Shown here: in pieces, positions 14,221 to 32,813 of the stretch
Numbering within the stretch: position 1 is the stretch's first letter
Layout of the letters: each line of letters opens with the position of its first letter
From: Rhodococcus sp. P1Y
Lineage (GTDB): Bacteria; Actinomycetota; Actinomycetes; Mycobacteriales; Mycobacteriaceae
Reading direction: 5' to 3'
NCBI RefSeq assembly: GCF_003641205.1
Contig: NZ_CP032762.1
Coordinates: forward strand, 4,670,001 to 4,734,000
Length of the DNA: 64,000 nucleotides
Program-made: the position numbers and the translations under genes
Notes under the pieces: model-generated
What the model was told of the DNA's origin: nothing
Databases searched by the model: none
What the model saw: the letters and a program-made list of their open reading frames with translations, nothing else

Positions 14221-14362
14221 GAATCAAGAGACTAATCCCACAGTGCGACAGATGTGAGATTGTTCAGCGCAGTGGTGTCCAGGGTTCGGTTCACGAAGAT
14301 CGTGAGTGCACTGCGCTAGCCTCGTCGGTGGACGAACGGACTTTCGATCGGAGGCTAGGTTC

Positions 14363-15337
14363 ATGACTGCCCCGACCGCCATCGACGATCTCGTCGACGA
14401 GGCCTACTCGGTGCGTCGGCGCGCATGGCAGGCGGCCTTGGTCACTGCCCAGAACTTTCTCGAGACCATCGCCGACGAAATTCTCGACAACGTCGATCGC
14501 GACCGCCTGAACGCTCAGAGCGCCCGCATCAAGGATCCGGCGCGGGCTGCGGACAAGCTTCGTCGCAAGATCGCCGAAGGCCGCATTCCCGAGCCTTCGA
14601 CCGTGTCCGATGTGGTGGACGCACTCGGCGACCTGATCGGGATCAAAGTCCTGTGCAAGAGCCCACGAGACCTGCACGCGTTCGTCGACGCCCTGGAACG
14701 GGCGTGCCGCGACCCGGAGTGTTCGGTACGGTTCGCGAAGGACCCGATGGACTACGTCGCGTATCCAAAACCTAGCGGGTATCGCGCTTATCACGCCGTG
14801 CTGCTGGTGCGAGTCGCAACGCATCAGGGCGATCTCGATGTCAAGGTCGAGGTTCAAGTCAAGACGCGACTTCAGGACGCATGGGGCGAGCTGACGCACG
14901 AGGACATGTACAAGCCGGGCGAGGCGTTGAAACCCACCGAGGCGCACAACGGCTATGCGCGCCGGATGGCCGACCTTCTGCTTCAGGTCGACCTGATGGC
15001 CGACGACCTGGCCGCCCAGCTCGATTCGCAGACAGCGGTGTCGAAAGATGCTGTAGCGCAGCCGAGCTTGGTACCCAAGGACTCCGCGATAATCTCGGCC
15101 CGGGTCACCCGTACCGGCCCGCGGTACGCATTGGCTGTCGGCCCGGACGGACGAAGAGGTCTGATCCCAGCGCGTTCGGTCAAGGCGGTCATAGGCGCGA
15201 AGGATCGCATCGCAGTCGACGACTACCTCGAAGTGGGCGACGTCGTGCAGGTAGTCGTCGAGGACGCGGAAGATGCTCTTTACTATCACCTCTCGTCGCA
15301 GCCGCCCTCGAAGAGGTCTCGAAAGCGACGCAGCTGA
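14363..15337 (+). CDS. RelA/SpoT synthetase-domain protein with C-terminal S1-like domain
   Basis: A 324-residue protein. Residues about 45-205 form a (p)ppGpp synthetase domain: ARIKDPARAADKLRRK, DLIGIKVLCKS, MDYVAYPKPSGYRAYHAVL and VEVQVKTRLQDAWGELTHE followed by YK, matching all main motifs of RelA/SpoT synthetases. There is no HD hydrolase domain. Residues about 245-312 (SARVTRTGPRYALAVG, GRRGLIPARSV, YLEVGDVVQVVVED) look like an S1/OB-fold RNA-binding domain. The ATG at 14363 follows GGAGGCTAGG. It may synthesise ppGpp or pyrophosphorylate another nucleotide or RNA. The OB-fold assignment is my reading of the pattern. Confidence 0.82.
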   Translation: MTAPTAIDDLVDEAYSVRRRAWQAALVTAQNFLETIADEILDNVDRDRLNAQSARIKDPARAADKLRRKIAEGRIPEPSTVSDVVDALGDLIGIKVLCKSPRDLHAFVDALERACRDPECSVRFAKDPMDYVAYPKPSGYRAYHAVLLVRVATHQGDLDVKVEVQVKTRLQDAWGELTHEDMYKPGEALKPTEAHNGYARRMADLLLQVDLMADDLAAQLDSQTAVSKDAVAQPSLVPKDSAIISARVTRTGPRYALAVGPDGRRGLIPARSVKAVIGAKDRIAVDDYLEVGDVVQVVVEDAEDALYYHLSSQPPSKRSRKRRS

Positions 15338-15569: not shown

Positions 15570-15939
15570 GCCACCCAAGTCCCGCCCCTGCCAAATCCCG
15601 ACGATTCAAGCCTGTGTATTCGATCCCCCCGGACCGAGTGTTGCGTGTCGTTCGATACTGGCACATTTTTGTCGGTTACGAATACCGACCGGTTTCGAAC
15701 CGGGCCTGCGCCGGGGCCGATCAGCCCCCCATCCAGCGCGTCTCGGCTTCATCGGGTAAGGCCGACGTGCAGCACCGAACCCAGCGAATTGACAAAGGCA
15801 AGGCTAATCTTAGTAGTCTGACACTTCCGGGTGCCGCTTCACCGAAGCAGCGACGCCCTGCCGTGACGGTATTCGCCGTCGATATTGCGTGCGACGGCCT
15901 CGATTGCCGCGCATGCCCGGACAGGGAAGAGGTCGAGAC
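15570..15939. other. Intergenic region ahead of the glutamate-synthase-like gene
   Basis: About 370 bases between two divergent genes. It contains a 15-base palindrome at 15689-15703 (CCGGTTTCGAACCGG) of unknown meaning and the promoter/iron-box candidate at 15789-15817. The rest shows nothing I can assign. Confidence 0.5.
15789..15817 (+). promoter_or_regulatory. Promoter candidate overlapped by a DtxR/IdeR-like iron box
   Basis: TTGACA at 15789-15794 is a perfect -35 box, and a weak -10 (TAGTAG) begins at 15811. The 19 bases at 15794-15812, AAAGGCAAGGCTAATCTTA, match the DtxR/IdeR consensus TTAGGTTAGGCTAACCTAA at 13 of 19 positions, including the central AGGCTAA. Placement over the promoter suggests repression in iron-replete cells. 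Binding is not demonstrated. Confidence 0.55.
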
Positions 15940-18900
15940 GTGCACTCTTCGGTCGGTTTGTACGACCCGTCGCTGGACTCCGACAGCTGCGGCGTCGGCT
16001 TCATCACGCGGAAGGACGGCGTCCAGTCGCACGACGTCTTGATCAAAGCCAGTGAGGCGCTGTGCTCGGTACCCCACCGCGGCGGGATGTCGGCCGAAGG
16101 CGTCGGAGACGGCGGGGGCGTCTCGCTCGATCTGTCGCTGAACTTCTTTCGCGGTATCACCGGTCGTCCAACACTCGAACTCGGCCGCTTCTGCGTCGGC
16201 AACTTCTTTCTGCCGGAGGACGAATCGCAGCACGGCCACGCTGTCCAATTGATTCATCGCGCAATGATCGATCGTGGATTCACTCCCCTTGTGGTCCGCG
16301 ACGTTCCCGTCGACAACACGGCGATTCGGCCAGCGGCAGTGAAATTCCAACGGACCATTCGTCAGTGGATCTGGGAAGTACCGCGGCCACGTCCGGAGCC
16401 TGCCGCAGTGGACCGCCTGATCCACGAAGCGCTCTTGCACATCGAATCGATCGCCTACACCACCCCGGCGCTCGCGGGCCTGTATCCGCTGTCGATGAGT
16501 GCACGCACACAGGTGCTCAAGGGACGCTTGAACTCCGACGAAGTCGTGCCGTACTTCCGCGACCTGCTCGATCCCGATCACTGCGTCCACACGATCTTCT
16601 TTCACACGCGGTTCTCCACCAACACCGATCCGCACCCGACCATGGCTCAGCCGTTCCGATTCATGGCACACAACGGGGAACTGAACACCGACAAGAAGAA
16701 TCGACTGGCCGAGGCTGCGGTCGCAAGCGCCAAGCGCCGCGCCATCGTCCGGCCGCCCGGCCAATCGGACAGTTGTCGACTCGATCAGACGGTGCAGGCA
16801 CGCGTAATCGAGGACAACGTCGATCTGGTCACCGCCGTCGTCTCGATGATGCCTCCGGCGTGGGAGAACGATTACACACTCTCACCGCAGGTACGCGCGA
16901 TGTTCGAGTACTTCTCGCTGTACGAGGAGAAGAACGACGGTCCTGCTGCCCTGGTGTTCGGCGACGGCACCGTCATCGGCGCACGGCTCGACCGACTCGG
17001 GCTGCGGCCCTTGCGCACTGTGGAAACCAACGACTACCTCTGCGCGTTCTCCGAGGCAGGCCAGGTTCGCTTCGCGCCCGAGACCATCACCCATCGCGGG
17101 CGCGTCGAGGCGGGTGGAATGATCTACTTCGATCATCGCGATCGACACACCTACACCACGCGCGAGGCATTCGAGAAGCTTGCCGCGGAACGCGATTACG
17201 CAGCGCTACTGAAGAATTCGCGCCTCGTACTCGATGACATCCCCGAGGCTCTCGAGGACGTGTCCGACACTTACTCCGGCGATCTGGATCTTCATCAGCG
17301 ATACGTCGCCTACTCCCTCGATCAGGAGAGCTTCAAATTTCTGATGGACCCGATGTTGGCCAACGGAGTCGAGCGTGTCTCAGCGATGGGCTACGGCAAC
17401 GCCATCAACGCGCTCACCGACCGTGAAGGCGGTCTTGCCAAGTACTTCTCGCAGCGCTTCGCGCAGGTTACCAACCCGCCGTTGGACAGCATTCGCGAGG
17501 GCGACGGTATGACACTGCGAGTCTCGCTCGGGTCGAAGCCGAACGTGGGTGGTCCGAGCTCCCGTCAAATCGTGATTCCGACGCCACTGCTCAGCCGAGA
17601 GGATCTTCGCCGTATCGGCGAGCAGTCCGAAACCCCGGTCGCGCGGTTCGCGATGGTGTACCGGGCGACCGACGGCGACAGGGCAGCGAACGAACGCGAC
17701 TTGATCGACGCTGTCGGCAGCCTTGCGGACGACGTTGTTCGCTTCGCCCGGGGTGGCGGAATTGCCATCCTCAGCGACCGCGACATCACCCGCGAACTCG
17801 CCGCACTACCTGCCATTGCCGTGGTGTCGTACGTCAACCAGCGACTCATCGATGCAGGCGTTCGGCTGCGGGTGTCTCTTGTCGTCGAAAGCGGACAGAT
17901 CTCGTCCTCGCACCACGTCGCCTTGGCACTCGGCTTCGGCGCCGCCGCGGTCCATCCGCTCACGGTGCAGTTGCGGGCCGAGGACAAATTCGGCACCGAC
18001 CCCGATCTCGCGTTCGCCAAATTCGTCAAGGCAGCCGAGAAGTCGTTGATGAAAACCATGGGCCGTGTCGGACTCTGCACGGTCGAGAGTTACATCGGCG
18101 GTGAGTTCTTCGAGCCGAACTTTCTTGACACCTCTGATCCTGTTCTGGCCCAATGGTTCCCGAATATGGTCTCTCCTGTCGGCGGCGTCGACTTCGGCGC
18201 GATCGCAGCATCGGTCGCGGACTGGCACGCGAATGCGTGTGCTTCCGCAAGCGAAGCCGATCTGCCGAACCTCGGCTTGTTCAAGGAACGCGCAGACGGC
18301 GCGGGCCACTCGTTCGGGGCGACCTCAGTGCGTGGATTCGTGGACATGACGAAGGAGAAAATCAGTTTTGCCGCCGCGGGAGCCGAGACCGACATCGCCC
18401 ACACCGACGCGCTTCGGCTTCTGACGATCACGAAACTGGCTGATTCCTTCGGGCTCGGTGCCGACGCCTACAACTCCACAAGTTTCTCCAGGCTCACCGA
18501 CGCGCAGATCGACGCGTTCGACATCACGTCCGATTACCGCGCCTTCGTACGATCGATGAACGAGGAGCGATCCCGGCGGCCCGCGGCGCTGCGTGACGTG
18601 TTGACGCTTCCAGCGGACGTATCGCAGTGCACCTCGGCCGAGGATTTCGCCATCGAACTCGGCCGACTCGACATCGAGGGAAACACGAGCATTCGCGTTC
18701 GCGGTCTCCGCGTGCGAGCGCTGTCCGACGGTGATTTCGAGCTGTCACTCGGCGGCGACCCGGGCAGAGCCGACGCGTTGGCAGACGCACTCGCACTCCT
18801 GTTCGGCAGCGACGTCGAGTGCGAGAACCGCAGCGGCACCGTGTTCGTCACCGCGCGCGGCCGCGCACGGCACTTGCTCGCCAAGACCGACACTGCGCCC

Positions 18901-21399
18901 CACGCCCTGCCACTGGTCGAAGTTCAAAAGGCAAGCACGATCACCCCGCTGCTGGCGTCGGGCGCCATGAGCCATGGGGCCCTCAACGCGAACGCACACG
19001 AGGCAGTAGCGCACGGCACCAACATGGTCGGCGCCATGTCCAACAGCGGCGAAGGTGGAGAACACATCTCGCGCTACGGCACTGTCCGTGCCTCCCGCAT
19101 CAAGCAGTTCGCGTCGGGACGGTTCGGCATCTGGGCCGGCTACCTCGCCGACCCGATGCTCGAGGAGATCGAGATCAAGATCGGTCAGGGAGCGAAACCG
19201 GGTGAGGGCGGCCAGCTTCCGGCACCGAAGGTGACCGTGGATATCGCAGCCGCCCGAAGCGGCACCCCCGGCGTCGAACTCGTCTCTCCCCCACCGCACC
19301 ACGACACGTACTCGATCGAGGACCTGGCTCAGCTGATCCACGACTGCAAGGCGGCTCGTGTTCGGGTCGTCGTCAAGCTGGTGTCTTCCGAGGGCATCGG
19401 CACCATCGCGGTCGGCGTCGCCAAGGCCGGCGCCGACGTCATCAACGTCGCCGGAAACACCGGCGGCACCGGAGCAGCGTCGGTGACGAGCCTGAAGTAC
19501 GCAGGCCGCGCCGCCGAAATCGGACTGTCCGAAGTCCACCAGGCACTGTGCGCCAACGGATTACGACAGAAGGTTGTACTCCGATGTTCGGGTGCACATC
19601 AGACCGGACGTGACGTGATCACCTCGGCGCTGCTCGGCGGAGACAGCTTCGAATTCGGGACGACGGCGCTGATGATGATGGGCTGCGTCATGGCGAAGAA
19701 CTGCAACGTCAAGTGTCCGGCCGGGCTGACCACCAACCCCGAGGTCTTCGACGGCGATCCGCGTTCGATGGCGCAGTATCTGCTCAACATCGCCCACGAG
19801 GTCCGCGAACACCTCGCCGATCTCGGCCTACGTTCGCTGCGCGAGGCACGCGGCCGCACCGACTTGCTGCATCTCCTCGATCATCCGGCCACGGTCGGGG
19901 CCCTCGACGTGCACGCGATGCTGACGGTCGTACCGGAGACGGTCGTCGTCGATCCTGTTTATCTCGAACGGGAGTACGACATCGACGACATGCTGCTCGC
20001 GGAGGTACGGACCGCGTTGGTCGACGGCCGCGCCGAATCGGTTGTGCCTGGCGAGCGGACGCATCTGGGCAACCTGAACAAGAGCGTCGGTGGACAGTTG
20101 GGCATCGACATCGAACGGATGCTCAACTACGAACTACCCCGCGGCGTCACCGACGCGATGCCCTCGGTGTTCACCGACGACAGGGGCCGCCGGTACCTCG
20201 CGCCGAGTGCCGTCGACGTGCGGACCTACGGGGCGGCCGGGCTTTCGTTCGCGGCATTCTGCAACGACGGAATGGTCATGGACCACACCGGAACCTGCAA
20301 CGACGGCGTCGGAAAGTCGATGAGCGGCGGAACAGTCGTCGTGCGCTCCCCTGGCGGCGGGTCACCCGAGGCCGGAGGCAACGTGCTGATCGGTAACTTC
20401 GCGTTGTTCGGAGCCACCGGCGGTCGCGCATTCGTCGAGGGTGAGTCGGGTGACCGGTTCGGCGTCAGAAATTCGGGCACCACCGCTGTCGTGGAGGGCG
20501 TGGGCGATTTCGCCTGCGAGTACATGACCGGCGGCGCTGTGCTCAACCTCGGTGGATTCGGCAAAGGTGTCTGCAACGGTATGAGCGGCGGGTTCTTCTA
20601 CCAGTACGACCCCAACCGGCTACTTCCGCTTCGCGCCAGCGCCGACTCGGTGATTCTCGGTTCGATTACGGCGCACGACGACCAAGCCGAGATCCACAAC
20701 CTGGCAGTGCGCATGCTGCTCGAATGGCACGCCGAAGCTACCGGTTCCGCCGCTGCAACCCGCCTGCTGCAGAACTGGGAGGTCGAGCAACACAGATTCG
20801 TCTACGCGATGCCGCGCGCTCTGCTGCTGTACCAGGACAGCGACGCGATCCTGGCAGCCAAGACGCGCAAGGAGCTGCTCGACGAGCTGGCGAGCTCTCT
20901 CGCGGTACAGCAGGTGCGTTCGTACAAACTCAGCCTTCGCGACCGAAGCCCCGTGCTCGGCGGATCCGTACCCGGATACGGCGAGACCGACACCGACGCC
21001 GTCTACGCGCTGCTCAACCACTACACCGTGCTGCACTACGCCCACGAGGTCGCACTGTTGCGGGTTCCTGGAGCGAGTACCCACGACGATCCCGCCGTGC
21101 ACAAGGCAGCGCGCAACCTGGTGCTGACCGAGGACTTCGCACTGGTCCAGCGCCTGAGCAGCTATGCGAAGGACGTCCTGGCCGGTTACGAGGACGACCA
21201 GCTCGCCGCGCTGATCGGTACGAAGCGAGTCGCCGACTACAAGCACGCCCTTACTGCACGCAACGTTCGTTCCACCGACAGCCCGGCCACCTACGGCTGG
21301 ATCATCTACCAGGACGCCAAGAACCGCGCAAAGCTCGGTTCGCTGCCGAGTTTCGACCAGTTGTTCGCTGCGCGATCCGTCCCCGACCTCGTGTCCTGA
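15940..21399 (+). CDS. gltB: Glutamate-synthase-like large subunit (divergent GltB)
   Basis: A 1819-residue protein with the domain order of glutamate synthase large subunits. It has an N-terminal type II glutamine amidotransferase with the presumptive N-terminal Cys exposed after a short propeptide (DSDSCGVGF; Cys17), a central domain, an FMN-binding synthase domain (NSGEGGEHISRYG, GQGAKPGEGGQLPAPKV, AGNTGGTGAASVTSLKYAG), an iron-sulphur motif with Cys at about 1249, 1255 and 1259, and a C-terminal GXGXG helix (GGTVVVRSPGGG, GNFALFGATGGRAFVEGESG). It is some 300 residues longer than typical GltB, with about 150 extra C-terminal residues. The GTG at 15940 follows GGGAAGAGG. No gltD is present; a diflavin reductase gene follows after 21 bases. 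Orthodox GOGAT activity is therefore uncertain. Confidence 0.88.
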   Translation: MHSSVGLYDPSLDSDSCGVGFITRKDGVQSHDVLIKASEALCSVPHRGGMSAEGVGDGGGVSLDLSLNFFRGITGRPTLELGRFCVGNFFLPEDESQHGHAVQLIHRAMIDRGFTPLVVRDVPVDNTAIRPAAVKFQRTIRQWIWEVPRPRPEPAAVDRLIHEALLHIESIAYTTPALAGLYPLSMSARTQVLKGRLNSDEVVPYFRDLLDPDHCVHTIFFHTRFSTNTDPHPTMAQPFRFMAHNGELNTDKKNRLAEAAVASAKRRAIVRPPGQSDSCRLDQTVQARVIEDNVDLVTAVVSMMPPAWENDYTLSPQVRAMFEYFSLYEEKNDGPAALVFGDGTVIGARLDRLGLRPLRTVETNDYLCAFSEAGQVRFAPETITHRGRVEAGGMIYFDHRDRHTYTTREAFEKLAAERDYAALLKNSRLVLDDIPEALEDVSDTYSGDLDLHQRYVAYSLDQESFKFLMDPMLANGVERVSAMGYGNAINALTDREGGLAKYFSQRFAQVTNPPLDSIREGDGMTLRVSLGSKPNVGGPSSRQIVIPTPLLSREDLRRIGEQSETPVARFAMVYRATDGDRAANERDLIDAVGSLADDVVRFARGGGIAILSDRDITRELAALPAIAVVSYVNQRLIDAGVRLRVSLVVESGQISSSHHVALALGFGAAAVHPLTVQLRAEDKFGTDPDLAFAKFVKAAEKSLMKTMGRVGLCTVESYIGGEFFEPNFLDTSDPVLAQWFPNMVSPVGGVDFGAIAASVADWHANACASASEADLPNLGLFKERADGAGHSFGATSVRGFVDMTKEKISFAAAGAETDIAHTDALRLLTITKLADSFGLGADAYNSTSFSRLTDAQIDAFDITSDYRAFVRSMNEERSRRPAALRDVLTLPADVSQCTSAEDFAIELGRLDIEGNTSIRVRGLRVRALSDGDFELSLGGDPGRADALADALALLFGSDVECENRSGTVFVTARGRARHLLAKTDTAPHALPLVEVQKASTITPLLASGAMSHGALNANAHEAVAHGTNMVGAMSNSGEGGEHISRYGTVRASRIKQFASGRFGIWAGYLADPMLEEIEIKIGQGAKPGEGGQLPAPKVTVDIAAARSGTPGVELVSPPPHHDTYSIEDLAQLIHDCKAARVRVVVKLVSSEGIGTIAVGVAKAGADVINVAGNTGGTGAASVTSLKYAGRAAEIGLSEVHQALCANGLRQKVVLRCSGAHQTGRDVITSALLGGDSFEFGTTALMMMGCVMAKNCNVKCPAGLTTNPEVFDGDPRSMAQYLLNIAHEVREHLADLGLRSLREARGRTDLLHLLDHPATVGALDVHAMLTVVPETVVVDPVYLEREYDIDDMLLAEVRTALVDGRAESVVPGERTHLGNLNKSVGGQLGIDIERMLNYELPRGVTDAMPSVFTDDRGRRYLAPSAVDVRTYGAAGLSFAAFCNDGMVMDHTGTCNDGVGKSMSGGTVVVRSPGGGSPEAGGNVLIGNFALFGATGGRAFVEGESGDRFGVRNSGTTAVVEGVGDFACEYMTGGAVLNLGGFGKGVCNGMSGGFFYQYDPNRLLPLRASADSVILGSITAHDDQAEIHNLAVRMLLEWHAEATGSAAATRLLQNWEVEQHRFVYAMPRALLLYQDSDAILAAKTRKELLDELASSLAVQQVRSYKLSLRDRSPVLGGSVPGYGETDTDAVYALLNHYTVLHYAHEVALLRVPGASTHDDPAVHKAARNLVLTEDFALVQRLSSYAKDVLAGYEDDQLAALIGTKRVADYKHALTARNVRSTDSPATYGWIIYQDAKNRAKLGSLPSFDQLFAARSVPDLVS

Positions 21400-21420
21400 C
21401 AAAGAGAAGCGACCACTGAC

Positions 21421-23205
21421 GTGCTCATTCCTTACATTCCAGACGATGCGCCGTTCTCCGGCGACCAGCGTGCCTGGCTGTCCGGCTTCCTAGCCGGGCT
21501 TCACTCGCGGATGGCCATGCCGACCGCGCCCGGCGCGCAGGCCGACGCGTCGGCGATCTCGGCGTCGGTTCCTCTCCAGATCCTCTACGGCAGCCAGACC
21601 GGAAACGCCGAAAGCCTTGCGCAGGACGCCGCCGACCTGGCGAGGCAACACGGACTCGACCCGCACGTCTCCTCTCTCGACGCCGTCGACATGAACGCCT
21701 TGTCCGCTATGCGGCGACTGATCGTTGTGACCTCCACCTACGGCCAGGGCGAGATGCCGGACAATGCCCAACTGTTCTGGGATGCTGTTGCCGCCGACTC
21801 TGCGCCGAGACTCGAGGGCTTATACTTTGCGGTCATGGCGCTGGGCGACACCAGCTACGACGGATACTGCAAAGCGGGGAAAGACATCGACGCACGACTG
21901 GAAGCACTCGGGGCAACTCGCAGCGCAGATCGTCTGGACTGCGACGTCGAGTACGAGGACGCCGCAGCAGCGTGGTTGTCGTCCACGGTGCCTGCCATAG
22001 CCGCCGTCGATGGTGGTGGTGGTGGTGGTGGTGCGCCTGCCGCAGCTGCAACCAAACCCGCGAAGGCTGCATCCAAGCGTTCACCGTGGAACCGCAAGAA
22101 CCCCTACCGCGCGACGGTTCTGGCCAACCGCGTTCTGTCCGGACCCGAGTCGTCGAAGGAAGTCCGCCACTTCGCCTTTGCTCTGGGAGACAGCGGTCTC
22201 GCCTACGAGGCGGGGGACGGCCTCGGCGTCAAGCCGGTCAACAATCCCGAACTGGTCGACGCCCTGATCGGCAGGCTGCGGGTGGTTCCGGACACGACTG
22301 TCACCGTCAAGGGCTCCGAGCAGCGACTCGACGAACTGCTGACGCACTCGTACGAAATCGGCGTGCCGTCGATGGACCTCATCGAAGCTGTTGCCGAACG
22401 AACGGGCGACGAGGAACTGGCGCATGTCCTCGCCACCGGCGACCGAGAAGCACTCGACGCATGGACATGGGGCAAGGACGTCCTCGACGTCCTTGCGCTG
22501 GACGAGACCCTTGCATTCGACCCGGCCGAGCTGTTGGAGCTGCTGAGGCCGCTTCAGCATCGGGTGTACTCGATCTCCTCCTCACCTCTCGCGCACGAGG
22601 GCACCGTTCACCTGACGGTCGCGAGCGTGCGGTACCGCTCAGCCGAGCGGGACCGAGGTGGCGTCTGCTCGACGTTCCTAGCGGACCGCGTCGCCGAGGG
22701 CGAATCCGCCGGAGTCTTCCTGTCTGCCAACAAGTCCTTCCGACTTCCCACGGACGACGACGCACCGGTCATCATGGTCGGGCCAGGCACCGGTATCGCG
22801 CCGTTCCGCGCGTTCCTGCACGAACGGCGTGCTCGCAATGCGTCGGGACGGAACTGGTTGTTCTTCGGCGACCAACATCGCGCGCACGACTACATCTACG
22901 AGGACGAGCTGAACAGCCTGTCTCGCGACGGGATCCTGACTCGTCTCGACCTCGCCTTCTCGCGGGACCACACCGAAAAGGTCTACGTCCAGCACCGGAT
23001 GCGTGAGAGCGGCAGGGAGCTCTACGCCTGGCTCGAAGAGGGCGGGCACTTCTACGTGTGCGGCGACGCTACGCGAATGGCCAAAGACGTCGAATCCGCA
23101 CTGCACGACGTCATCGTCGAGCACGGTGGTCGCACCGCGGACCAAGCCGAGGACTATCTCGCCGAACTCAAGCGCTCCAAGCGTTACCTGCGCGACGTCT
23201 ACTGA
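21421..23205 (+). CDS. CysJ-like diflavin reductase (FMN/FAD, NADPH)
   Basis: A 594-residue diflavin reductase. Residues about 55-195 form a flavodoxin domain (LYGSQTGNAESLAQ, TSTYGQGEMPDNA, ALGDTSYDGYCKAG). A linker with seven glycines follows at about 198-204, then the FAD domain (RVYSISSSPLAHEG, GGVCSTFLAD) and the NADPH domain (VGPGTGIAPFRAFLHER, YVCGDATRMAKDV, ending LKRSKRYLRDVY as in CysJ). It transfers electrons from NADPH through FAD and FMN to a partner. No sulfite reductase hemoprotein gene is nearby; the gene sits 21 bases after the glutamate-synthase-like gene, so it is the probable electron donor to that protein. The start is a GTG at 21421. Confidence 0.9.
   Translation: MLIPYIPDDAPFSGDQRAWLSGFLAGLHSRMAMPTAPGAQADASAISASVPLQILYGSQTGNAESLAQDAADLARQHGLDPHVSSLDAVDMNALSAMRRLIVVTSTYGQGEMPDNAQLFWDAVAADSAPRLEGLYFAVMALGDTSYDGYCKAGKDIDARLEALGATRSADRLDCDVEYEDAAAAWLSSTVPAIAAVDGGGGGGGAPAAAATKPAKAASKRSPWNRKNPYRATVLANRVLSGPESSKEVRHFAFALGDSGLAYEAGDGLGVKPVNNPELVDALIGRLRVVPDTTVTVKGSEQRLDELLTHSYEIGVPSMDLIEAVAERTGDEELAHVLATGDREALDAWTWGKDVLDVLALDETLAFDPAELLELLRPLQHRVYSISSSPLAHEGTVHLTVASVRYRSAERDRGGVCSTFLADRVAEGESAGVFLSANKSFRLPTDDDAPVIMVGPGTGIAPFRAFLHERRARNASGRNWLFFGDQHRAHDYIYEDELNSLSRDGILTRLDLAFSRDHTEKVYVQHRMRESGRELYAWLEEGGHFYVCGDATRMAKDVESALHDVIVEHGGRTADQAEDYLAELKRSKRYLRDVY
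22012..22032 (+). repeat. (GGT)7 microsatellite in the diflavin reductase linker
   Basis: Seven consecutive GGT triplets encode the glycine hinge between the flavodoxin and FAD domains. Length changes would stay in frame and only alter hinge length. Confidence 0.9.
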
Positions 23206-23285
23206 CGCCTCGGCAACTTTGTCGGACCCACCCGCTATCTTTCGATTCGTAGATGGATGAGCCGGGAATCGACGAAGGAGCGCGC

Positions 23286-24128
23286 GTGAGAACTGGACGT
23301 GAAGACCGGTCCGATGGCGGCGTCTTCGATACCGTCGTCGCGGATGCGTGGGAGCAGTTCGAGACGAACCTGGCATCGAAGGTCGCCGCGCTGACCGTCG
23401 GGACGTACATCACGATCACGTCGGCGCAGGCGTCCCACGGTCAGCGAGGTCAGCGTCCGTACGTGGACGTGGTCGCCGTCGATGCGGACCAGACTCTCGG
23501 CGTCGCCTCGCTACCGTCGTACCTGTACCCGGATGCACCGGCCATCGAGATGGTCGACCGCCGATTCCACGGACTCGGATGGTCGGAACCGGGCAGACCG
23601 ACCGTCGACGGCACGGTGATGGACTACGTGCTCGACGTCGCACCCGATGAATCCGATCTCCTAGTCACCTTGACGGTGGCCACGTTCCGCGAGGTGTGGA
23701 ACGTTCCGCATCCGTCGTTCCTCAGCGCGTGGAGGGTCGGGCAGAACGGCGAACAGGACGGTCCGGTCTCACTCGCACATCCCACCGTCCCGCCGACCCC
23801 CGCACGCGACGCCGAACCGCCGGTCGGTCTGCGCTCACTACACGCCTGGTGCGAGGTCGTCGGTGCGCGCGTCGATGCAGCCACTGTCCTAGCGGTCTGC
23901 GGTGAGGACGATCTCGACGAACTGGCCCGCCGCGCCCTTGTTCACGCCGACAACTGCGCCGCTCGATCCGCACACTTCTCGCGCAACGGTGAACGCACCG
24001 CGTCGCGGGTGTGGTGCAAGCTAGCTCGATCCTGGAACGACACTGCCATCAGCCTCCGCGGTGCCGTCACCCAATCCGGAAGTGCACTGTCACGGGAGGA
24101 TCGTCCGGCGAAGTCCACTGGCTCGTAG
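23286..24128 (+). CDS. TY-Chap domain protein, copy 2
   Basis: A 280-residue protein related to the one at 1423-2592. Shared features are the opening DAWEQFETNLASKVAAL and FREVWNVPHPSFLSAW. It keeps the N-terminal TY-Chap-like domain (about 15-150) and a C-terminal helical part similar to that of copy 1 (TVLAVCGEDDLDELARRALV), but lacks the central YbjN-like part. The GTG at 23286 follows GAAGGAG; an ATG 33 bases upstream has no ribosome-binding site. Its 3' end overlaps that of the converging recD by 39 bases. Function unknown. Confidence 0.65.
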   Translation: MRTGREDRSDGGVFDTVVADAWEQFETNLASKVAALTVGTYITITSAQASHGQRGQRPYVDVVAVDADQTLGVASLPSYLYPDAPAIEMVDRRFHGLGWSEPGRPTVDGTVMDYVLDVAPDESDLLVTLTVATFREVWNVPHPSFLSAWRVGQNGEQDGPVSLAHPTVPPTPARDAEPPVGLRSLHAWCEVVGARVDAATVLAVCGEDDLDELARRALVHADNCAARSAHFSRNGERTASRVWCKLARSWNDTAISLRGAVTQSGSALSREDRPAKSTGS

Positions 24129-25955
24129 AACCTGCCGATCAACTCCTGCACGCACGGCGTCCTCGGTTCCGATGATCCGCACGTGCCGCCGCGCCCTGGT
24201 GATGGCGGTGTAGAGAAGTTCCCGGGTCAGCAGCGACGATGCTTGTTCGGGCAGCATGACCGATACGGTGTCGTACTGGCTGCCCTGGCTGCGGTGGATG
24301 GTCATCGCGTACACCGTCTGCACCGAGGACAACACGTTGGGATGGACGAGTAACGGCTGGGCTCCACGCTGGAATGCTGCCATGAGCGCCCCGTCTCCGA
24401 CGTCGACGATCACTCCGGTGTCGCCGTTGTAGATGCGAGCTTCATGGTCGTTCGCGGTGACGAGCAGCGGCTGGCCCGGGTACCACTGAGCCGGATCCAG
24501 AAACGCCCCCGACGACTCGCCCACCCATTCCATCGCCCGTCGCGCCCAGGCCTGAACTCCGTATGGCCCCTGCCTGTGCGCACACAGCAACCGATGCGTT
24601 TCGAGCCCGGCGAGCGCTTCTGCAGCCAGCCCTGCACGAGCTGCAGACGTCACGGTCGACGCAGCGCTGAGGATGTCGGAGTGGAGCGCATCGAGATCGG
24701 TGGGCGCGTGAAAAGACAGTTCTTCGGTATCGGCACGAAGCAGCTGCATCGCTCGATCCGGATCACCGTCGCGGACCGAGACGGCCAATTCGGCAATGGC
24801 TCCCCCGAACCTCCTGCCACGGCTCAGTCGTACGACTCCGCCCCCGAGCCTGGATTGCTCCTTCGGCGACAGTGCAGTCTCGTTCGGGTCGTCGCGTGCG
24901 TCCAGGTCGCCGCCGACCAGCGTGACGAGGTCGGGGCTCACGGTACTGCGTACAGGTCGCGCAACAAGATCGGCCAGCACTGCACCCGCGTCGACCGAGG
25001 TCAACTGATCAGGATCGCCGACGAGAATCAATCTCGTATCCGCGCGGACCGCTTCGAGAAGCCGACACATCATCGTCAGGGACACCATGGACGTCTCGTC
25101 GACGACGATCACGTCGTAGGGCAACCGGTTCGACGCGTTGTGCCGGAACCGGCTCTTGCTGCCTCGCTGCCAGCCCAGCAGCCGATGCAGCGTCATCGCA
25201 GTAAGGTTCGAGGGTAAACCGAGTTCCGCTGACTGGTCTGTCACCGACTCCTGCAGCCGCGCAGCGGCTTTACCAGTCGGCGCGGCCAGCCCGATCCTGA
25301 TGGACGGACCCAGTTGCTCGACGAACATTGCCAGTACGCGAGCGACCGTGTGCGTCTTACCTGTTCCCGGACCGCCCGCGATGACGGTCGTCCATTGCGT
25401 GGCCGCCAGCGCCGCCGCTATGCGCTGACGGTCCGGAACAGCCGTCGGTCGATTGGAGCCATCCACGAACAGGGAATCCAACAATGCCCGAACCGCTGCC
25501 GTATCGACCTCGGGTCGGGTGCCCTCGCGCGTATCCAACACCGTGCGGATGGTTCGTTCCTGCAGGAAATACCGGTCGAGGTAGAGCAACTCGCCTTCGT
25601 CGGTGTCGACCAGCCGAAGCGGCCTGAGTGGACCGCGCTGTCCGCCGACGACGAGCGGACTGGCGCGCAACGCTGCCAGCACGTCGGCGAGTTCCGGCCA
25701 AGGAAGAGCGTCTACGTCGACATCGGATTCCTCGTCGACCGTCACATCTCGAAGGCGCCGCAGATCCAGGCATACCGAGCCCGACCTGACTGCTCGCACG
25801 GCCAGAGCGGCGGCAAAGAGCACATCCTCGTCCGTCTCGCCACCGAGGGCGCCGAGCCTGAGCGCGACATGCACATCGGCAGCGGCGAGAATTCCTGCAC
25901 CGTTGAAGACCCCGAGGCGACCCCGAGCACGCTGAACCAACTGCGCGTCGATCAT
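24090..25955 (-). CDS. recD: Exodeoxyribonuclease V subunit alpha (RecD)
   Basis: A 621-residue SF1B 5'-3' helicase, the fast motor of RecBCD. Walker A is TVIAGGPGTGKTHTVAR (about residue 165), followed by DETSMVSLTMM (Walker B region), VGDPDQLTSVDAGAVL and the C-terminal VYAMTIHRSQGSQYD and LYTAITRARRHV motifs. The ATG at 25955 overlaps the recB stop as ATGA, so recB and recD are translationally coupled. It acts in repair of double-strand breaks in the cytoplasm. Length is near the usual 600-620. Confidence 0.95.
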   Translation of the reverse strand: MIDAQLVQRARGRLGVFNGAGILAAADVHVALRLGALGGETDEDVLFAAALAVRAVRSGSVCLDLRRLRDVTVDEESDVDVDALPWPELADVLAALRASPLVVGGQRGPLRPLRLVDTDEGELLYLDRYFLQERTIRTVLDTREGTRPEVDTAAVRALLDSLFVDGSNRPTAVPDRQRIAAALAATQWTTVIAGGPGTGKTHTVARVLAMFVEQLGPSIRIGLAAPTGKAAARLQESVTDQSAELGLPSNLTAMTLHRLLGWQRGSKSRFRHNASNRLPYDVIVVDETSMVSLTMMCRLLEAVRADTRLILVGDPDQLTSVDAGAVLADLVARPVRSTVSPDLVTLVGGDLDARDDPNETALSPKEQSRLGGGVVRLSRGRRFGGAIAELAVSVRDGDPDRAMQLLRADTEELSFHAPTDLDALHSDILSAASTVTSAARAGLAAEALAGLETHRLLCAHRQGPYGVQAWARRAMEWVGESSGAFLDPAQWYPGQPLLVTANDHEARIYNGDTGVIVDVGDGALMAAFQRGAQPLLVHPNVLSSVQTVYAMTIHRSQGSQYDTVSVMLPEQASSLLTRELLYTAITRARRHVRIIGTEDAVRAGVDRQVLRASGLRRTILP

Positions 25956-28900
25956 GCAGGCTCCACTCCGGCTAAGAGGTCGGATACGTCGGCCACCAGT
26001 TTCGCCGGCGGGTACCAATCGAAAACTCCGCAGCCCGAAGGTGTTTCAGGACCGACCATACCGCGCACGAAATGGTACTGAACGCCACCGAGATGGTGCT
26101 CGGGGTCGTAACCGGGCTGGCGCCACCGCAAGTAGCGATGCAGTGCCACCGCGTACAGCAATGCCTGCAGCGGGTAGTGCGAGCGCAACATTTCCTGCGC
26201 CATGCGTTCGCGAGTGAAGTGCATGACGGTGAGGTCTCCCCTGGACAATCTGTTGGTCTTGTAGTCGACAATGACGTACTTCGAGGTTCCGTTGCCGGTG
26301 ATGTCGTCATCCGTGGTGTCGCTGTCTGTGGTGTCGCTACTAGGGCTTCCACTGATGGGAATGCGCAGTACGGAGTCGATGCTGCCGGTGAGATACCCAC
26401 GCAGTGGCTGAGATTCGAGGTTCTCCAGTTGGTCTGCGTACGACCGCAGAGAATCGTCGGCCGGTAGATGCTCGCGCAGAAGTCGCGCGATTCCGGTGAG
26501 CATGACGGCGTGCGCGACAGGGTGTTCTCCACCGGCGAGCGGTAGCTCGAAGTCCAGTTCGGCCAGGTGATCGTTCGGTGAGATGTCGGCGAGCGTTCCG
26601 AAACCCAAGGGCGTCTTCAGCACTGGCATCAACGCATCCGCCAGCGCCTGGGGTTCGATGTCGGCCAGTCGTTCCTCGATCGCCTCGGTGCATCGTGCGA
26701 GCAACTCCGCGCCCAGATTCTCCGCCGCGGTGTCGAGATGCTCGAGTACTTCGTGCACGAGAGTTCCGAACGCGGCCCCGGCGGGAAGGCCGTTCATCGG
26801 TGACGGTATGCCCGCCAGCACATCGTCGACAGGAGGTGCCTCCTTCGGTTCGTCGTCCTTCTCGGGACGCTCGGGTTCACTGGTGACGCCGGGCCCGTCG
26901 TGTGCGGAGGCGGTCAGCGCCGAATACGACGTCCGACGCCACAGCATGTCGAGGGATCTGCCGAACGTTGCGGCTTCCAGCTTCGCCCCCGCGTTGTGAA
27001 CGTGCTCGGGTATCGGTCGCGGACGCACAGCGCCGCCGGGTTCGACCGAGATCAGGCCACCTGCCGGGGACGCCCATGCCTCGAGCTGCCGGAGGGATAC
27101 CGCGTCCTCGGGTACTTTGATCTTGTCCTCGGGCGCTGCGGACCCCAGTGCACGTCCGAAGAGCAACCGATGCAGTGGTGATACAGCAGTCGAGTACGAC
27201 GGGGCCCACCACAAGACCACCTGGCACTGAGCACGGGTCAGCGCGACATACAGCAACCGAAGTTCTTCGCCTGCTTCTTCTGCATCTCGGACAATCTTTC
27301 GCGCAGCGTATCCGTGGCCGGTCCGACCGCCGACGTCGAGAACTCGCCTGCCGTCCTCGTCGTGCAGCAGCAGCGTGCTCGGATACGGGTTTTTCGACGC
27401 GTCCCACGCGAACGGCACGTAGACGACGGGAAATTCCAGGCCCTTGCTCGCGTGAACCGTAGCGATCTGCACGGCAGCGGCATCGCTGTCGAGGCGCCGG
27501 CTCCGATCGGCGACGCTGCCCGAGGCAGGATCCTCGACGCGATCAGCCAACCATCTCGTCAACGCGCTCGGCCCGAACGACTCCTCGACGGACGCACGAT
27601 TGAGCAGTTGTGCGAGATGGCGTAGGTCGGTCAATTGGCGCTCGCCCGAGCGGTATCCGAGCAGTCGAGCTTCGAGGCGGGAATGCGCAGCCACCTTTTC
27701 GAACACTGCAGCGAAACCGGCCTGCGCGAACAACACGGCGTACTCGCGAAAGAGGGTACTGACTTCGGCTACAGCGTCGTCGCCTCGCTCGTCGAGAGAT
27801 TCCGCCGTGAACCCGAGCAACGGGGTCAGTGCCGCAAGCCGTATGCGGTCGCCTCGGTGAGGTTGCTCGAGCGCTTGCAGGAACCAGAGCCACTGCAGCG
27901 CACTTGGCGTCTCGAACACGCTCGAACCGCCTGCGAGGACCGAGGGAACGCCTGCTCGATCGAGCGCTTCGCGAACGAGTGCGATCTGCGCACGGGTGCG
28001 CACGAGCACGGCTACGTCACCCGGTGTCACCGCGGAATCACGGGCTGGCAGAGCAAGTCTCGTGTCGGACTCCAAGAGATCGACGATGTCTGCGGCGAGA
28101 TCGTCGGCGACTCGATCCCGCAGCGGCCCCACTGCGGGAAATCCGGATTTGTTCAGGGGTCCTGCCCCGGTTCGGGGCAGAACCCTCAGGCGAAGCGGCG
28201 GTCTTTCGGACATTCGTGAGCCGTCGTGCGTGGATCCCACCGGGTGCGCCACGATCTCGTCGTGACCCAATGCTGCACCGGCGTATACGCTTTCGAGTGC
28301 CCTCAGAAGTCCGGCGTCACTGCGCCAATTGGTGGTCAGCTCGAGGTGTCTGTCGGCGAGCGCGACAGCGTCGAGGTAGCTGAGGACCTCGGCGCCGCGG
28401 AAAGCGTAGATCGCTTGCTTGGGGTCACCCACCAGCAACAGTGTCGATGTTCCGTGAAACGCTCGGCGCAGAATGTCCCACTGCAGTGGGTCTGTGTCCT
28501 GGAATTCGTCGACGAGGACGACCTTGAAACGGTCCCGCACGCGAACACAGGCGGCTGCGCCGTGCACTGGGTCGGTCAGAACTCCGTGCAACAAACTCAA
28601 CAGATCGTCGAAATCGCGCACACCCGAGGATCGCTTGCGGCGCTGCACCTCCTCGCGCGCCTCGGTAGCGAAGAGCACGCGGTGTCCGGCTTCGGTCTCC
28701 TCGCTGGGCTCGGGCACGAGTTGCGCTTGGCGATCGCGCACCGCTTCACGCGCCACCTGCCTGGCATCGGCCGGTCCGATCGGCGCTCCGAATTCCGAAC
28801 GTCCGTACCGGCGCAGGTAAATATCGTCGGCGACTTCGTTGGTCACGTCGTCGACGGCTTCGACGAGAGTTACTTCGGGTTCGCGCTCGCCCGCGATGCC

Positions 28901-29293
28901 GAGGCCGTCGAGCATGCGTTGACAGAAACTATGCGTGGTGGCGATGGTTCCGGAGTCGAACTCCGACAGCGCACGGGCCAACCGAGCACGCCGCAGAGCC
29001 ACCTCGCTCTCGGACGCGGCAGACAAATATGCGACCAATGGATCGGAGCTACGGATTGTCGGGTTTCCCAGCGCGGCTTCGACTTCGGCGAATCTACTTC
29101 GAGTGCGCTCACGAAGTTCCTGGGTCGCGGCACGGGAGAAGGTGACAAGCAGCAACTGCGACACCTCGGCGATTCCCTCGGCCACATACCGAGTTGCCAG
29201 GCCCACGATGGCGTAGGTCTTGCCCGTTCCCGCGCTGGCTTCGAGCACGGTGGTACCGGCCGGCAGCGGACCGAGAAGGTCGAAGTCCGTCAC
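25952..29293 (-). CDS. recB: Exodeoxyribonuclease V subunit beta (RecB)
   Basis: A 1113-residue UvrD-like 3'-5' helicase with a C-terminal nuclease domain. Walker A is VLEASAGTGKTYAI (about residue 16). Other motifs are DEFQDTDPLQWDIL, LVGDPKQAIYAFRGAEV, TVHASKGLEFPVVYVPFAW and YVALTRAQCQ. The RecB-family nuclease motif is near residue 1000: VIVDYKTNRLS, containing the catalytic Asp and Lys (DYK), with an upstream Asp in SIDSVLR. The start overlaps the recC stop by ATGA. Middle gene of the recC-recB-recD operon. Confidence 0.95.
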   Translation of the reverse strand: MTDFDLLGPLPAGTTVLEASAGTGKTYAIVGLATRYVAEGIAEVSQLLLVTFSRAATQELRERTRSRFAEVEAALGNPTIRSSDPLVAYLSAASESEVALRRARLARALSEFDSGTIATTHSFCQRMLDGLGIAGEREPEVTLVEAVDDVTNEVADDIYLRRYGRSEFGAPIGPADARQVAREAVRDRQAQLVPEPSEETEAGHRVLFATEAREEVQRRKRSSGVRDFDDLLSLLHGVLTDPVHGAAACVRVRDRFKVVLVDEFQDTDPLQWDILRRAFHGTSTLLLVGDPKQAIYAFRGAEVLSYLDAVALADRHLELTTNWRSDAGLLRALESVYAGAALGHDEIVAHPVGSTHDGSRMSERPPLRLRVLPRTGAGPLNKSGFPAVGPLRDRVADDLAADIVDLLESDTRLALPARDSAVTPGDVAVLVRTRAQIALVREALDRAGVPSVLAGGSSVFETPSALQWLWFLQALEQPHRGDRIRLAALTPLLGFTAESLDERGDDAVAEVSTLFREYAVLFAQAGFAAVFEKVAAHSRLEARLLGYRSGERQLTDLRHLAQLLNRASVEESFGPSALTRWLADRVEDPASGSVADRSRRLDSDAAAVQIATVHASKGLEFPVVYVPFAWDASKNPYPSTLLLHDEDGRRVLDVGGRTGHGYAARKIVRDAEEAGEELRLLYVALTRAQCQVVLWWAPSYSTAVSPLHRLLFGRALGSAAPEDKIKVPEDAVSLRQLEAWASPAGGLISVEPGGAVRPRPIPEHVHNAGAKLEAATFGRSLDMLWRRTSYSALTASAHDGPGVTSEPERPEKDDEPKEAPPVDDVLAGIPSPMNGLPAGAAFGTLVHEVLEHLDTAAENLGAELLARCTEAIEERLADIEPQALADALMPVLKTPLGFGTLADISPNDHLAELDFELPLAGGEHPVAHAVMLTGIARLLREHLPADDSLRSYADQLENLESQPLRGYLTGSIDSVLRIPISGSPSSDTTDSDTTDDDITGNGTSKYVIVDYKTNRLSRGDLTVMHFTRERMAQEMLRSHYPLQALLYAVALHRYLRWRQPGYDPEHHLGGVQYHFVRGMVGPETPSGCGVFDWYPPAKLVADVSDLLAGVEPA

Positions 29294-32568: not shown

Positions 32569-32813
32569 CTTTGCGTCTCCCCCTGCATAGCTCACACGAC
32601 CGACCGAACCACTTGACCCTACTCGAGCCACCGACAAATTCTCGGTGCGAGGCTCGGCACCGCATGTACGACGCAGTGGAGTCGGCAACGTGCTCGACCC
32701 ATCGTGGGTCACCTCTCACCGACCCCGTGTTCACCCGTAAAGCATGAAATCGGTCCACGCGCGCCTGTGGTCGGTTTGTCCGGCTCATACTCGTCTGCAG
32801 TCGAGCGAGGACG

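What the first reader, a model, noticed from the sequence alone, without database searches (positions are those of the whole stretch)
15940..23205. Glutamate-synthase-like giant coupled to a CysJ-type diflavin reductase instead of GltD
Seen: a 1819-residue GltB-like protein with amidotransferase, FMN and GXGXG domains plus a roughly 150-residue C-terminal extension, followed after 21 bases by a diflavin reductase with no sulfite reductase hemoprotein and no gltD nearby. Known: bacterial glutamate synthase normally takes electrons from the GltD subunit, and CysJ normally serves sulfite reductase. Inference: NADPH-FAD-FMN electrons feed the synthase iron-sulphur/FMN centre, making a different glutamate synthase or a related amidotransfer enzyme. 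This is the strongest candidate for an undescribed system in the window.
Basis: partly seen in the sequence, partly recalled or inferred. Interest (0 to 1): 0.8.

Follow-up and report, generated by a model that had tools for sequence, protein, structure and literature searches.

The report
Low-iron glutamate synthase using diflavin reductase
The two genes appear to make a form of the nitrogen-assimilating enzyme glutamate synthase in which an iron-free flavin protein takes the place of the usual iron-sulphur partner, apparently so that cells can keep making glutamate when iron is scarce.

Summary
Window 15940-21399 encodes a 1819-aa GltB-type protein; after 21 bases follows a 594-aa CysJ-type FAD/FMN/NADPH reductase. 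The pair is conserved: in 79 of 80 related loci from Actinomycetota, Proteobacteria and Verrucomicrobiota the reductase lies directly downstream (the 80th ends at a contig edge), and the two proteins' distances track each other (r 0.92). The GltB type has two lineage-specific inserts and an invariant, one residue shorter cluster motif (CX5CX3C, 78 of 78 read). Of 50 genomes searched, 11 lack GltD, and in 10 of those this is the only GltB. In SAR92-type bacteria the pair sits in the gltBD place between aroB and hemE, the diflavin in the gltD slot. Iron boxes are frequent upstream in two groups: IdeR/DtxR-like in actinobacteria (16 of 25; held out 16 of 28) and RirA-type TGA-N9-TCA in Rhizobiaceae and Stappiaceae-type loci (21 of 28), but 0 of 20 in other Alphaproteobacteria. 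I read it as an iron-sparing glutamate synthase: NADPH > FAD > FMN > GltB cluster > FMN. Activity and iron response are inferred, not measured.

The parts
15794..15812 (+). IdeR/DtxR-like iron box AAAGGCAAGGCTAATCTTA (13/19), overlapping the end of a TTGACA -35-like hexamer (15789-15794)
   Evidence: the block is conserved in L008, L054, L009. Weak on its own; supported by stronger boxes upstream of relatives
15940..21399 (+). GltB-type glutamate synthase large subunit, diflavin-linked subtype (1819 aa, GTG start)
15988..17202 (+). class-II glutamine amidotransferase domain with conserved Cys17, R47, N245, G246, D277 (start of the Pfam match; Cys17 lies at 15988-15990)
   Evidence: Pfam GATase_2; same residues in canonical GltB
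17299..18114 (+). Glu_syn_central domain
18337..18894 (+). stretch with the lineage-specific insert (residues about 800-985, roughly 150 extra); its second half is a confidently modelled small alpha/beta domain
18871..19830 (+). FMN / 2-oxoglutarate domain (Glu_synthase)
   Evidence: K1086 and Q1092 conserved
19684..19716 (+). Fe-S cluster motif CVMAKNCNVKC (CX5CX3C; canonical is CX5CX4C)
20137..20685 (+). GXGXG beta-helix domain
20827..21396 (+). C-terminal mostly helical extension (about 190 aa), candidate docking module; no Pfam or PDB sequence relative found beyond the last GltB helix
   Evidence: in the family search 55 of 62 matches lie in frames of 1770 aa or more, 7 in shorter frames not examined
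21421..23205 (+). CysJ-type NADPH diflavin reductase (FMN, FAD, NADPH domains; SRD...K.YVQ and C-terminal KRY.RDVY conserved)

Best explanation
The two genes encode a glutamate synthase (glutamine + 2-oxoglutarate + NADPH -> 2 glutamate) whose reductase is not the iron-sulphur protein GltD but an iron-free diflavin reductase. NADPH reduces the FAD, electrons pass to the reductase's FMN domain, which docks on the GltB-type subunit (perhaps on its helical C-terminal extension or inserted domain) and feeds its cluster and FMN; ammonia released from glutamine in the N-terminal domain is used on 2-oxoglutarate. In most hosts searched, this one included, it stands beside canonical gltBD, and I propose that it is switched on when iron is short (IdeR/DtxR-type repression in actinobacteria, RirA-type in rhizobia). 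In some marine lineages it is the only glutamate synthase found. Shown from sequence: gene pair, conservation, residues, replacement, boxes. Inferred: enzymatic activity, electron path, docking site, iron response.
For: Adjacency in 79 of 80 loci; tight spacing (about -23 to +74 nt); co-variation r 0.915 against a maximum of 0.17 in 500 permutations, n = 77. Catalytic Cys, Gln-binding, FMN/2-oxoglutarate and three cluster Cys retained. 11 of 50 genomes have no GltD at E<=1e-100; in 10 of the 11 this is the only PF01645 match at E<=1e-30. In SAR92-type loci the pair stands between aroB and hemE, where 20 of 20 fetched canonical regions of the same order have gltBD. Not a sulfite reductase part: no full-length CysI in the own genome; G022 and G028 have separate CysJ beside CysI; in 12 of 23 genomes the linked diflavin is the only diflavin match at E<=1e-30. 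Iron: IdeR-like boxes >=13/19 in 16 of 25 actinobacterial upstreams against 6 windows in 510 kb elsewhere, 16 of 28 held-out upstreams against 0.8% in composition shuffles; TGA-N9-TCA in 21 of 28 Rhizobiaceae/Stappiaceae-type upstreams, shuffles mean 1.8, maximum 6 of 200 rounds; no such box before the host's two canonical gltB (small control); HemS/ChuX-like third gene in 25 of 79 loci, one weakly; siderophore uptake genes follow in Ketogulonicigenium. Canonical GOGAT is an iron-sparing target in Caulobacter and B. subtilis.
Against: No activity, expression or structure data. The window's own iron box is only 13/19. 9 of 25 and 12 of 28 actinobacterial upstreams stay below 13/19, among them a whole Rhodococcus lineage (L035, L046, L060, L075, L082 and the like); many boxes come from close relatives and are not independent. 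TGA-N9-TCA is absent in 20 of 20 other alphaproteobacterial upstreams, Rhodobacterales included, though several of these hosts also carry canonical GltBD; no Fur box in the SAR92 group. Ten of the 11 GltD-less genomes are MAGs by title, which may be incomplete; one is an isolate. All 11 have a glutamate dehydrogenase-type match, so the pair need not be the only route to glutamate. G027 has a weaker 166-bit GltD-like protein. The shorter cluster motif could mean an altered cluster.
Confidence: 0.7

Rival explanations
1. It is a diflavin-driven glutamate synthase, but its purpose is not iron sparing: it serves another condition (oxygen or oxidative stress, NADPH balance, low nitrogen).
For: Rhodobacterales and one Rhodococcus lineage keep both enzymes without a recognisable iron box; iron regulators also answer oxidative stress (general knowledge).
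Against: Two unrelated iron-regulator box types in two phyla, HemS-like third gene and siderophore genes nearby.
Confidence: 0.18
2. The GltB-type protein is an amidotransferase or reductive aminase for another acceptor than 2-oxoglutarate, perhaps in siderophore or heme-iron metabolism.
For: Long stem branch, two inserts and 81 class-specific columns, insert columns included; HemS-like and siderophore neighbours.
Against: Lys/Gln of the 2-oxoglutarate site unchanged; it stands in the gltBD place in SAR92-type genomes that have no other GltB.
Confidence: 0.09
3. The diflavin protein is an ordinary CysJ of assimilatory sulfite reductase that happens to lie beside a gltB paralogue.
For: NCBIfam NF004859 'sulfite reductase subunit alpha' is passed (504 against a cut-off of 432) and the four public records opened annotate it as a sulfite reductase subunit.
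Against: No full-length CysI in the own genome; a separate CysJ stands beside CysI in G022 and G028; adjacency to this GltB in 79 of 80 loci with r 0.915 co-variation. TIGR01931 cysJ is not passed (626 against 668).
Confidence: 0.03

Closest known systems
Bacterial NADPH-dependent glutamate synthase GltBD (PDB 1ea0, 6s6s, 7mfm)
   Same: Domain order, catalytic residues, FMN/2-oxoglutarate motifs, three cluster cysteines; 36-42% identity in the FMN + GXGXG half
   Different: No GltD; CysJ-type diflavin partner; insert of roughly 150 and extension of about 190 residues; CX5CX3C instead of CX5CX4C; below the NCBIfam equivalog cut-off (982 against 1047)
Ferredoxin-dependent glutamate synthase (PDB 1ofd, 1llw)
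   Same: A GltB-type subunit fed by a donor other than GltD
   Different: A dedicated NADPH diflavin reductase is encoded by the next gene; sequence scores higher against NADPH-type GltB
CysJ, NADPH sulfite reductase flavoprotein
   Same: Flavodoxin-FAD-NADPH domains; best PDB sequence matches are sulfite reductase flavoproteins
   Different: No CysI partner found in the own genome; linked to GltB
Molybdopterin oxidoreductase fused to a CysJ-type diflavin unit (nitrate reductase type by recall)
   Same: In the same genome: a diflavin unit coupled to another redox enzyme, 44% identical to this diflavin
   Different: Fused rather than separate; different catalytic partner

Membership tests
Glutamate synthase large subunit (GltB) | class-II amidotransferase with N-terminal catalytic Cys | tested here: met
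   GATase_2 match; C17 the same in both sets (only the 9 full-length canonical sequences reach that far)
Glutamate synthase large subunit (GltB) | FMN / 2-oxoglutarate site (GAKPGEGGQ and neighbours; role of Lys and Gln recalled) | tested here: met
   K1086, Q1092, E1038, E1041 the same in both sets
Glutamate synthase large subunit (GltB) | [3Fe-4S] ligand motif CX5CX4C | tested here: inconclusive
   three Cys kept, spacing CX5CX3C in 78 of 78 read; CX5CX4C in 39 of 39 canonical; the cluster itself cannot be tested here
NADPH-GOGAT (GltBD) | GltD beta subunit as partner | tested here: not met
   no gltD at the locus; diflavin downstream in 79 of 80; 11 of 50 genomes without GltD
NADPH-GOGAT (GltBD) | passes NCBIfam equivalog NF008730 | tested here: not met
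   981.6 bits against 1047
Ferredoxin-dependent glutamate synthase | takes electrons from free ferredoxin, no dedicated reductase gene | tested here: inconclusive
   a dedicated NADPH diflavin gene is adjacent; donor preference itself cannot be tested here
NADPH sulfite reductase (CysJI) | CysI hemoprotein partner | tested here: not met
   no full-length CysI in own genome; 2 of 14 genomes pass the cut-off and these have a separate CysJ
Iron-sparing isoenzymes | under control of an iron repressor | tested here: inconclusive
   iron boxes enriched upstream in two groups, absent in others; expression not tested
Glutamate synthase (function) | glutamine- and 2-oxoglutarate-dependent NADPH oxidation to glutamate | not testable with these tools
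   needs protein

The most novel reading that the evidence does not exclude
The enzyme is entirely free of iron in working form: the shortened CX5CX3C motif no longer holds a [3Fe-4S] cluster, and electrons pass from the diflavin's FMN domain directly, or through a cysteine or other centre, to the synthase FMN, giving an iron-free NADPH glutamate synthase.
Probability: 0.12. Interest if true: 0.9.

Novelty: new variant of a known kind. Interest (0 to 1): 0.75.

Why it matters
Glutamate synthase is a main entry of nitrogen into biosynthesis and, in its known NADPH form, an iron-rich enzyme that several bacteria turn down at low iron. A form whose reductase needs no iron would explain how soil actinobacteria and rhizobia keep the GS-GOGAT cycle running in iron starvation, and how some marine bacteria (SAR92/Porticoccaceae, SAR116 MAGs) could lower their iron quota for nitrogen assimilation. 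It would add an electron-donor class to a textbook enzyme, correct the annotation 'sulfite reductase subunit alpha' for the reductase, and it is directly testable.

Tried and rejected
Sulfite reductase pairing: rejected. Fur boxes: scanned in loci with at least 300 bp upstream; nothing beyond shuffles in the SAR92 group; a few low shuffle fractions elsewhere (for example L014, 13/19) were not followed. A first reading that it might be the only route to glutamate in GltD-less genomes was dropped: 8 of 11 have the large NAD-GDH and the other three PF00208 matches of 170-187 bits. Rfam: no leader element at gathering score in six loci (the cobalamin riboswitch in L053 is on the other strand, near its FecCD genes), none credible in the window and L021 leaders. 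Motif in Rhodobacterales upstreams by alignment: nothing convincing. C-terminal extension: no relative in Pfam or PDB sequence beyond the last GltB helix (weak TetR_C_16 matches below the cut-off in 17 of 49 members). Fold comparison of the 1040-residue model: the 50 matches shown are GltB and FMN-barrel enzymes; much of the FMN barrel was poorly modelled, so no docking or cluster geometry was drawn from it. Literature; I saw the listings (titles, abstract starts) and passages of some papers; none of these describes a diflavin-linked glutamate synthase. Most subscription journals are not in the library.

Counting notes: the 80 loci are the best 80 of 167 relatives. 78 proteins (window included) were read for the motif; L065, L087 and L076 were left out because my automatic start ran past a stop or the contig edge. 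Of 29 gltD matches, 20 regions were fetched; left out were the five over the TIGR01317 cut-off (another GltD type) and four others. In one search the row 'X_between' is by mistake the GltB itself. The table wrongly includes L076 and is replaced. TGA-N9-TCA was first counted on 28 loci (24 Rhizobiaceae, 4 Stappiaceae/Cohaesibacter type); the remaining 21 alphaproteobacterial loci were counted later: 1 of 21 (L056, by title Rhizobiaceae), so 22 of 49 in all. Held-out IdeR test: 40 upstreams fetched, 4 without a found start, 8 already seen, 28 counted. Shuffles keep base composition only. The HemS-like profile was built from 17 of the loci it was then counted in; two of the 79 have under 700 bp after the diflavin. 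In one search, 91 of the 113 neighbour frames were scanned; the HemS-like genes, a GltB frame and frames that looked spurious were dropped.
Full report
What is there. ORF 15940-21399 (+) encodes a 1819-residue GltB-type protein and ORF 21421-23205 (+), 21 bases on, a 594-residue diflavin reductase. Pfam finds GATase_2, Glu_syn_central, Glu_synthase and GXGXG in the first, and Flavodoxin_1, FAD_binding_1 and NAD_binding_1 in the second. The first falls below NCBI's equivalog cut-off for GltB (982 against 1047) and the second below that for cysJ (626 against 668), though it passes a model named 'sulfite reductase subunit alpha'. The host genome (5.87 Mb, one contig) has two further full GltB frames, each with a GltD next to it, and no full-length CysI. 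Its one other diflavin match at E<=1e-30 is the C-terminal part of a molybdopterin oxidoreductase fusion.

Is the pair real? A scan of one genome per species gave 167 relatives, the best 80 kept, at 54-87% identity over most or all of the length. In 79 of 80 the diflavin gene follows directly; in the remaining one (L066) the contig ends. Spacing is about -23 to +74 nt, from extrapolated starts. Protein distances of the two partners correlate at r 0.915 over 77 loci (largest of 500 permutations 0.17). Hosts are Rhodococcus, Nocardia, mycobacteria and Microbacteriaceae, Rhizobiaceae and other Alphaproteobacteria, Comamonas, SAR92/Porticoccaceae, SAR116 and an opitutal MAG. Distribution is patchy: 3 of 396 genomes of the phylum and 62 of 301 of the family carry the marker extension. 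Nine plasmid records hold it at 60-80% identity. In a tree of the FMN region (quick method, 325 columns) the 40 sampled members form one side of a branch (SH-aLRT 86, not starred) with a long stem (1.2); the program warns that long branches meet there. Actinobacterial members do not group together, which hints at horizontal transfer but rests on weakly supported branches.

Anatomy. 225 positions carry the same letter in at least 99% of both the new and the canonical set, among them Cys17, R47, N245, G246 and D277 of the amidotransferase and K1086/Q1092 of the 2-oxoglutarate site (roles recalled from the Azospirillum enzyme) (of the 39 canonical sequences 9 are full-length). Three things set the new type apart: an insert of roughly 150 residues within 800-985, whose second half is a confidently modelled small alpha/beta domain; a mostly helical C-terminal extension (about 1630-1819) without relatives found in Pfam or PDB; and the cluster motif CVMAKNCN[VI]KCP, CX5CX3C, in 78 of 78 proteins read, against CX5CX4C in 39 of 39 canonical GltB. 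The diflavin keeps the FMN, FAD and NADPH signatures, including SRD...K.YVQ, which in this superfamily binds the NADPH phosphate (recalled).

Function by replacement. I searched 50 genomes, one per chosen locus. All 50 have a GltB-family match, but 11 have no GltD at E<=1e-100; in 10 of these the only GltB-family match at E<=1e-30 is the diflavin-linked one, and lowering the bar to 1e-20 adds one 166-bit GltD-like protein in G027. Ten of the eleven are MAGs and one (L072, Pseudovibrio hongkongensis) an isolate, judged by record titles. In the SAR92/Porticoccaceae loci L047, L048, L069 and L078 the order is aroK-aroB-new GltB-diflavin-hemE; L076 shows the part its contig holds. In 20 of 20 regions fetched around canonical gltD from the same order (of 29 matches; five of another GltD type and four more were not fetched), aroK, aroB and canonical gltB stand in that order, with hemE further on in the fetched stretch in 18. 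The diflavin thus sits where gltD sits in the relatives. All 11 GltD-less genomes have a glutamate dehydrogenase-type match, the large NAD type in 8 and PF00208 type in the other three, so this is the only glutamate synthase found there, not necessarily the only way to glutamate.

Not a sulfite reductase part. CysI passes its cut-off in 2 of 14 genomes tested (G022, G028; G046 has a 645-bit match below it); both have a separate CysJ beside CysI, 44% and 36% identical to the window's diflavin. In 12 of 23 genomes the GltB-linked diflavin is the only diflavin match at E<=1e-30.

The iron link. The DtxR consensus TTAGGTTAG(G/C)CTAACCTAA, which the paper says IdeR sites resemble, is from PMC1382209 (passages). 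Within 250 bp upstream of the actinobacterial genes, 16 of 25 have a match of at least 13/19, seven of them 15-16/19; elsewhere in the same loci there are 6 such windows in 510,349. On 28 upstreams not used before, from the window's family, 16 reach 13/19; composition shuffles do so in 0.8%. In both sets several boxes come from close relatives and are not independent. The window's own box (15794-15812, 13/19) is weak by itself but overlaps the end of a -35-like hexamer, and its block is conserved in the nearest relatives. One Rhodococcus lineage lacks a box altogether. In Rhizobiaceae and Stappiaceae-type loci, TGA-N9-TCA (the IRO box of RirA, PMC6386902 passages) occurs within 350 bp upstream in 21 of 28, shuffles giving 1.8 on average and 6 at most; 17 of the 21 have the form TTGACT.., a -35-like element. 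Of the other 21 alphaproteobacterial loci only L056 has it: 0 of 20 in Rhodobacterales, Methylopilaceae, Hyphomicrobium, Rhodospirillaceae and SAR116, several of which also have canonical GltBD; what controls the gene there I did not find. The host's two canonical gltB upstreams score 11 and 9 of 19. Of ten GltD-less loci with upstream sequence only L072 has TGA-N9-TCA. A HemS/ChuX-like gene follows the pair in 25 of 79 loci, one weakly; the window lacks it but its neighbours L008 and L054 have it. On a Ketogulonicigenium plasmid the pair is followed by a hypothetical gene, an AraC regulator, a TonB siderophore receptor and siderophore ABC genes. Among 91 neighbours in 12 Rhodobacterales loci, FecCD and TonB receptors (4 each), Peripla_BP_2 (3) and SIP (2) recur (no chance rate measured, and the FecCD set of L053 lies by a cobalamin riboswitch).

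Mechanism proposed. GltD carries two [4Fe-4S] clusters and GltB one [3Fe-4S] (recalled). Exchanging GltD for a reductase with only FAD and FMN would cut the iron need per unit from eleven atoms to three, the same logic as flavodoxin for ferredoxin. The path NADPH > FAD > FMN (reductase) > cluster > FMN (synthase) is inferred. Whether the shortened motif still binds a cluster is open; that is the basis of the most novel reading.

Known or new? The listings of the searches named show no description of such an enzyme in the held library. In the four plasmid records opened the pair is annotated as 'glutamate synthase large subunit' or 'glutamate synthase-related protein' and as a sulfite reductase flavoprotein/alpha subunit. 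I file it as a new variant of glutamate synthase: it keeps the catalytic residues tested, but is not a member of the GltBD type, since the GltD partner is absent.

Noticed in passing
15820-15939 and the same place in L008, L054, L009: A leader block of about 45 bases is conserved between relatives whose proteins are 72-87% identical; the window leader folds somewhat better than shuffles (z -2.4) and matches no Rfam family credibly. Could be a cis-regulatory RNA.
   Followed up: partly
Agrobacterium/Rhizobium loci, e.g. L011, L014, L021, last 130 bases before the gene: Conserved GC-rich leader (AGGTCACCTGCGGCTCCGCCCGCGG-like) with pairing halves near the start codon; no credible Rfam match in L021.
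   Followed up: partly
L008, L009, L054, L025, L027, L028, L029, L038, L079 and others, first gene after the diflavin: A HemS/ChuX-like protein (PF05171) is a recurrent third gene across phyla (25 of 79 loci) but is missing in the window although its nearest relatives have it.
   Followed up: partly
NCBIfam NF004859: The model 'sulfite reductase subunit alpha' is passed by this GltB-linked diflavin (504 against 432); public annotations based on it are probably misleading.
   Followed up: partly
L219 1595-5764 (own genome, about 4.212-4.216 Mb): Molybdopterin oxidoreductase fused to a CysJ-type diflavin unit (1389 aa): another redox enzyme with its own diflavin donor.
   Followed up: partly
plasmid records H1-H9 (Sinorhizobium, Neorhizobium, Shinella, Ketogulonicigenium, Tsukamurella): The GltB type also occurs on large plasmids; four were opened, all with the diflavin next to it, one plasmid predicted conjugative.
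   Followed up: partly
14306-15337 and 23253-24128: Flanking genes: a RelA/SpoT-domain protein upstream and a TY-Chap3-domain protein downstream; no sign that they belong to the system.
   Followed up: no
24090-32712, minus strand: Three overlapping long ORFs that look by eye like RecD, RecB and RecC of a RecBCD set; not tested.
   Followed up: no
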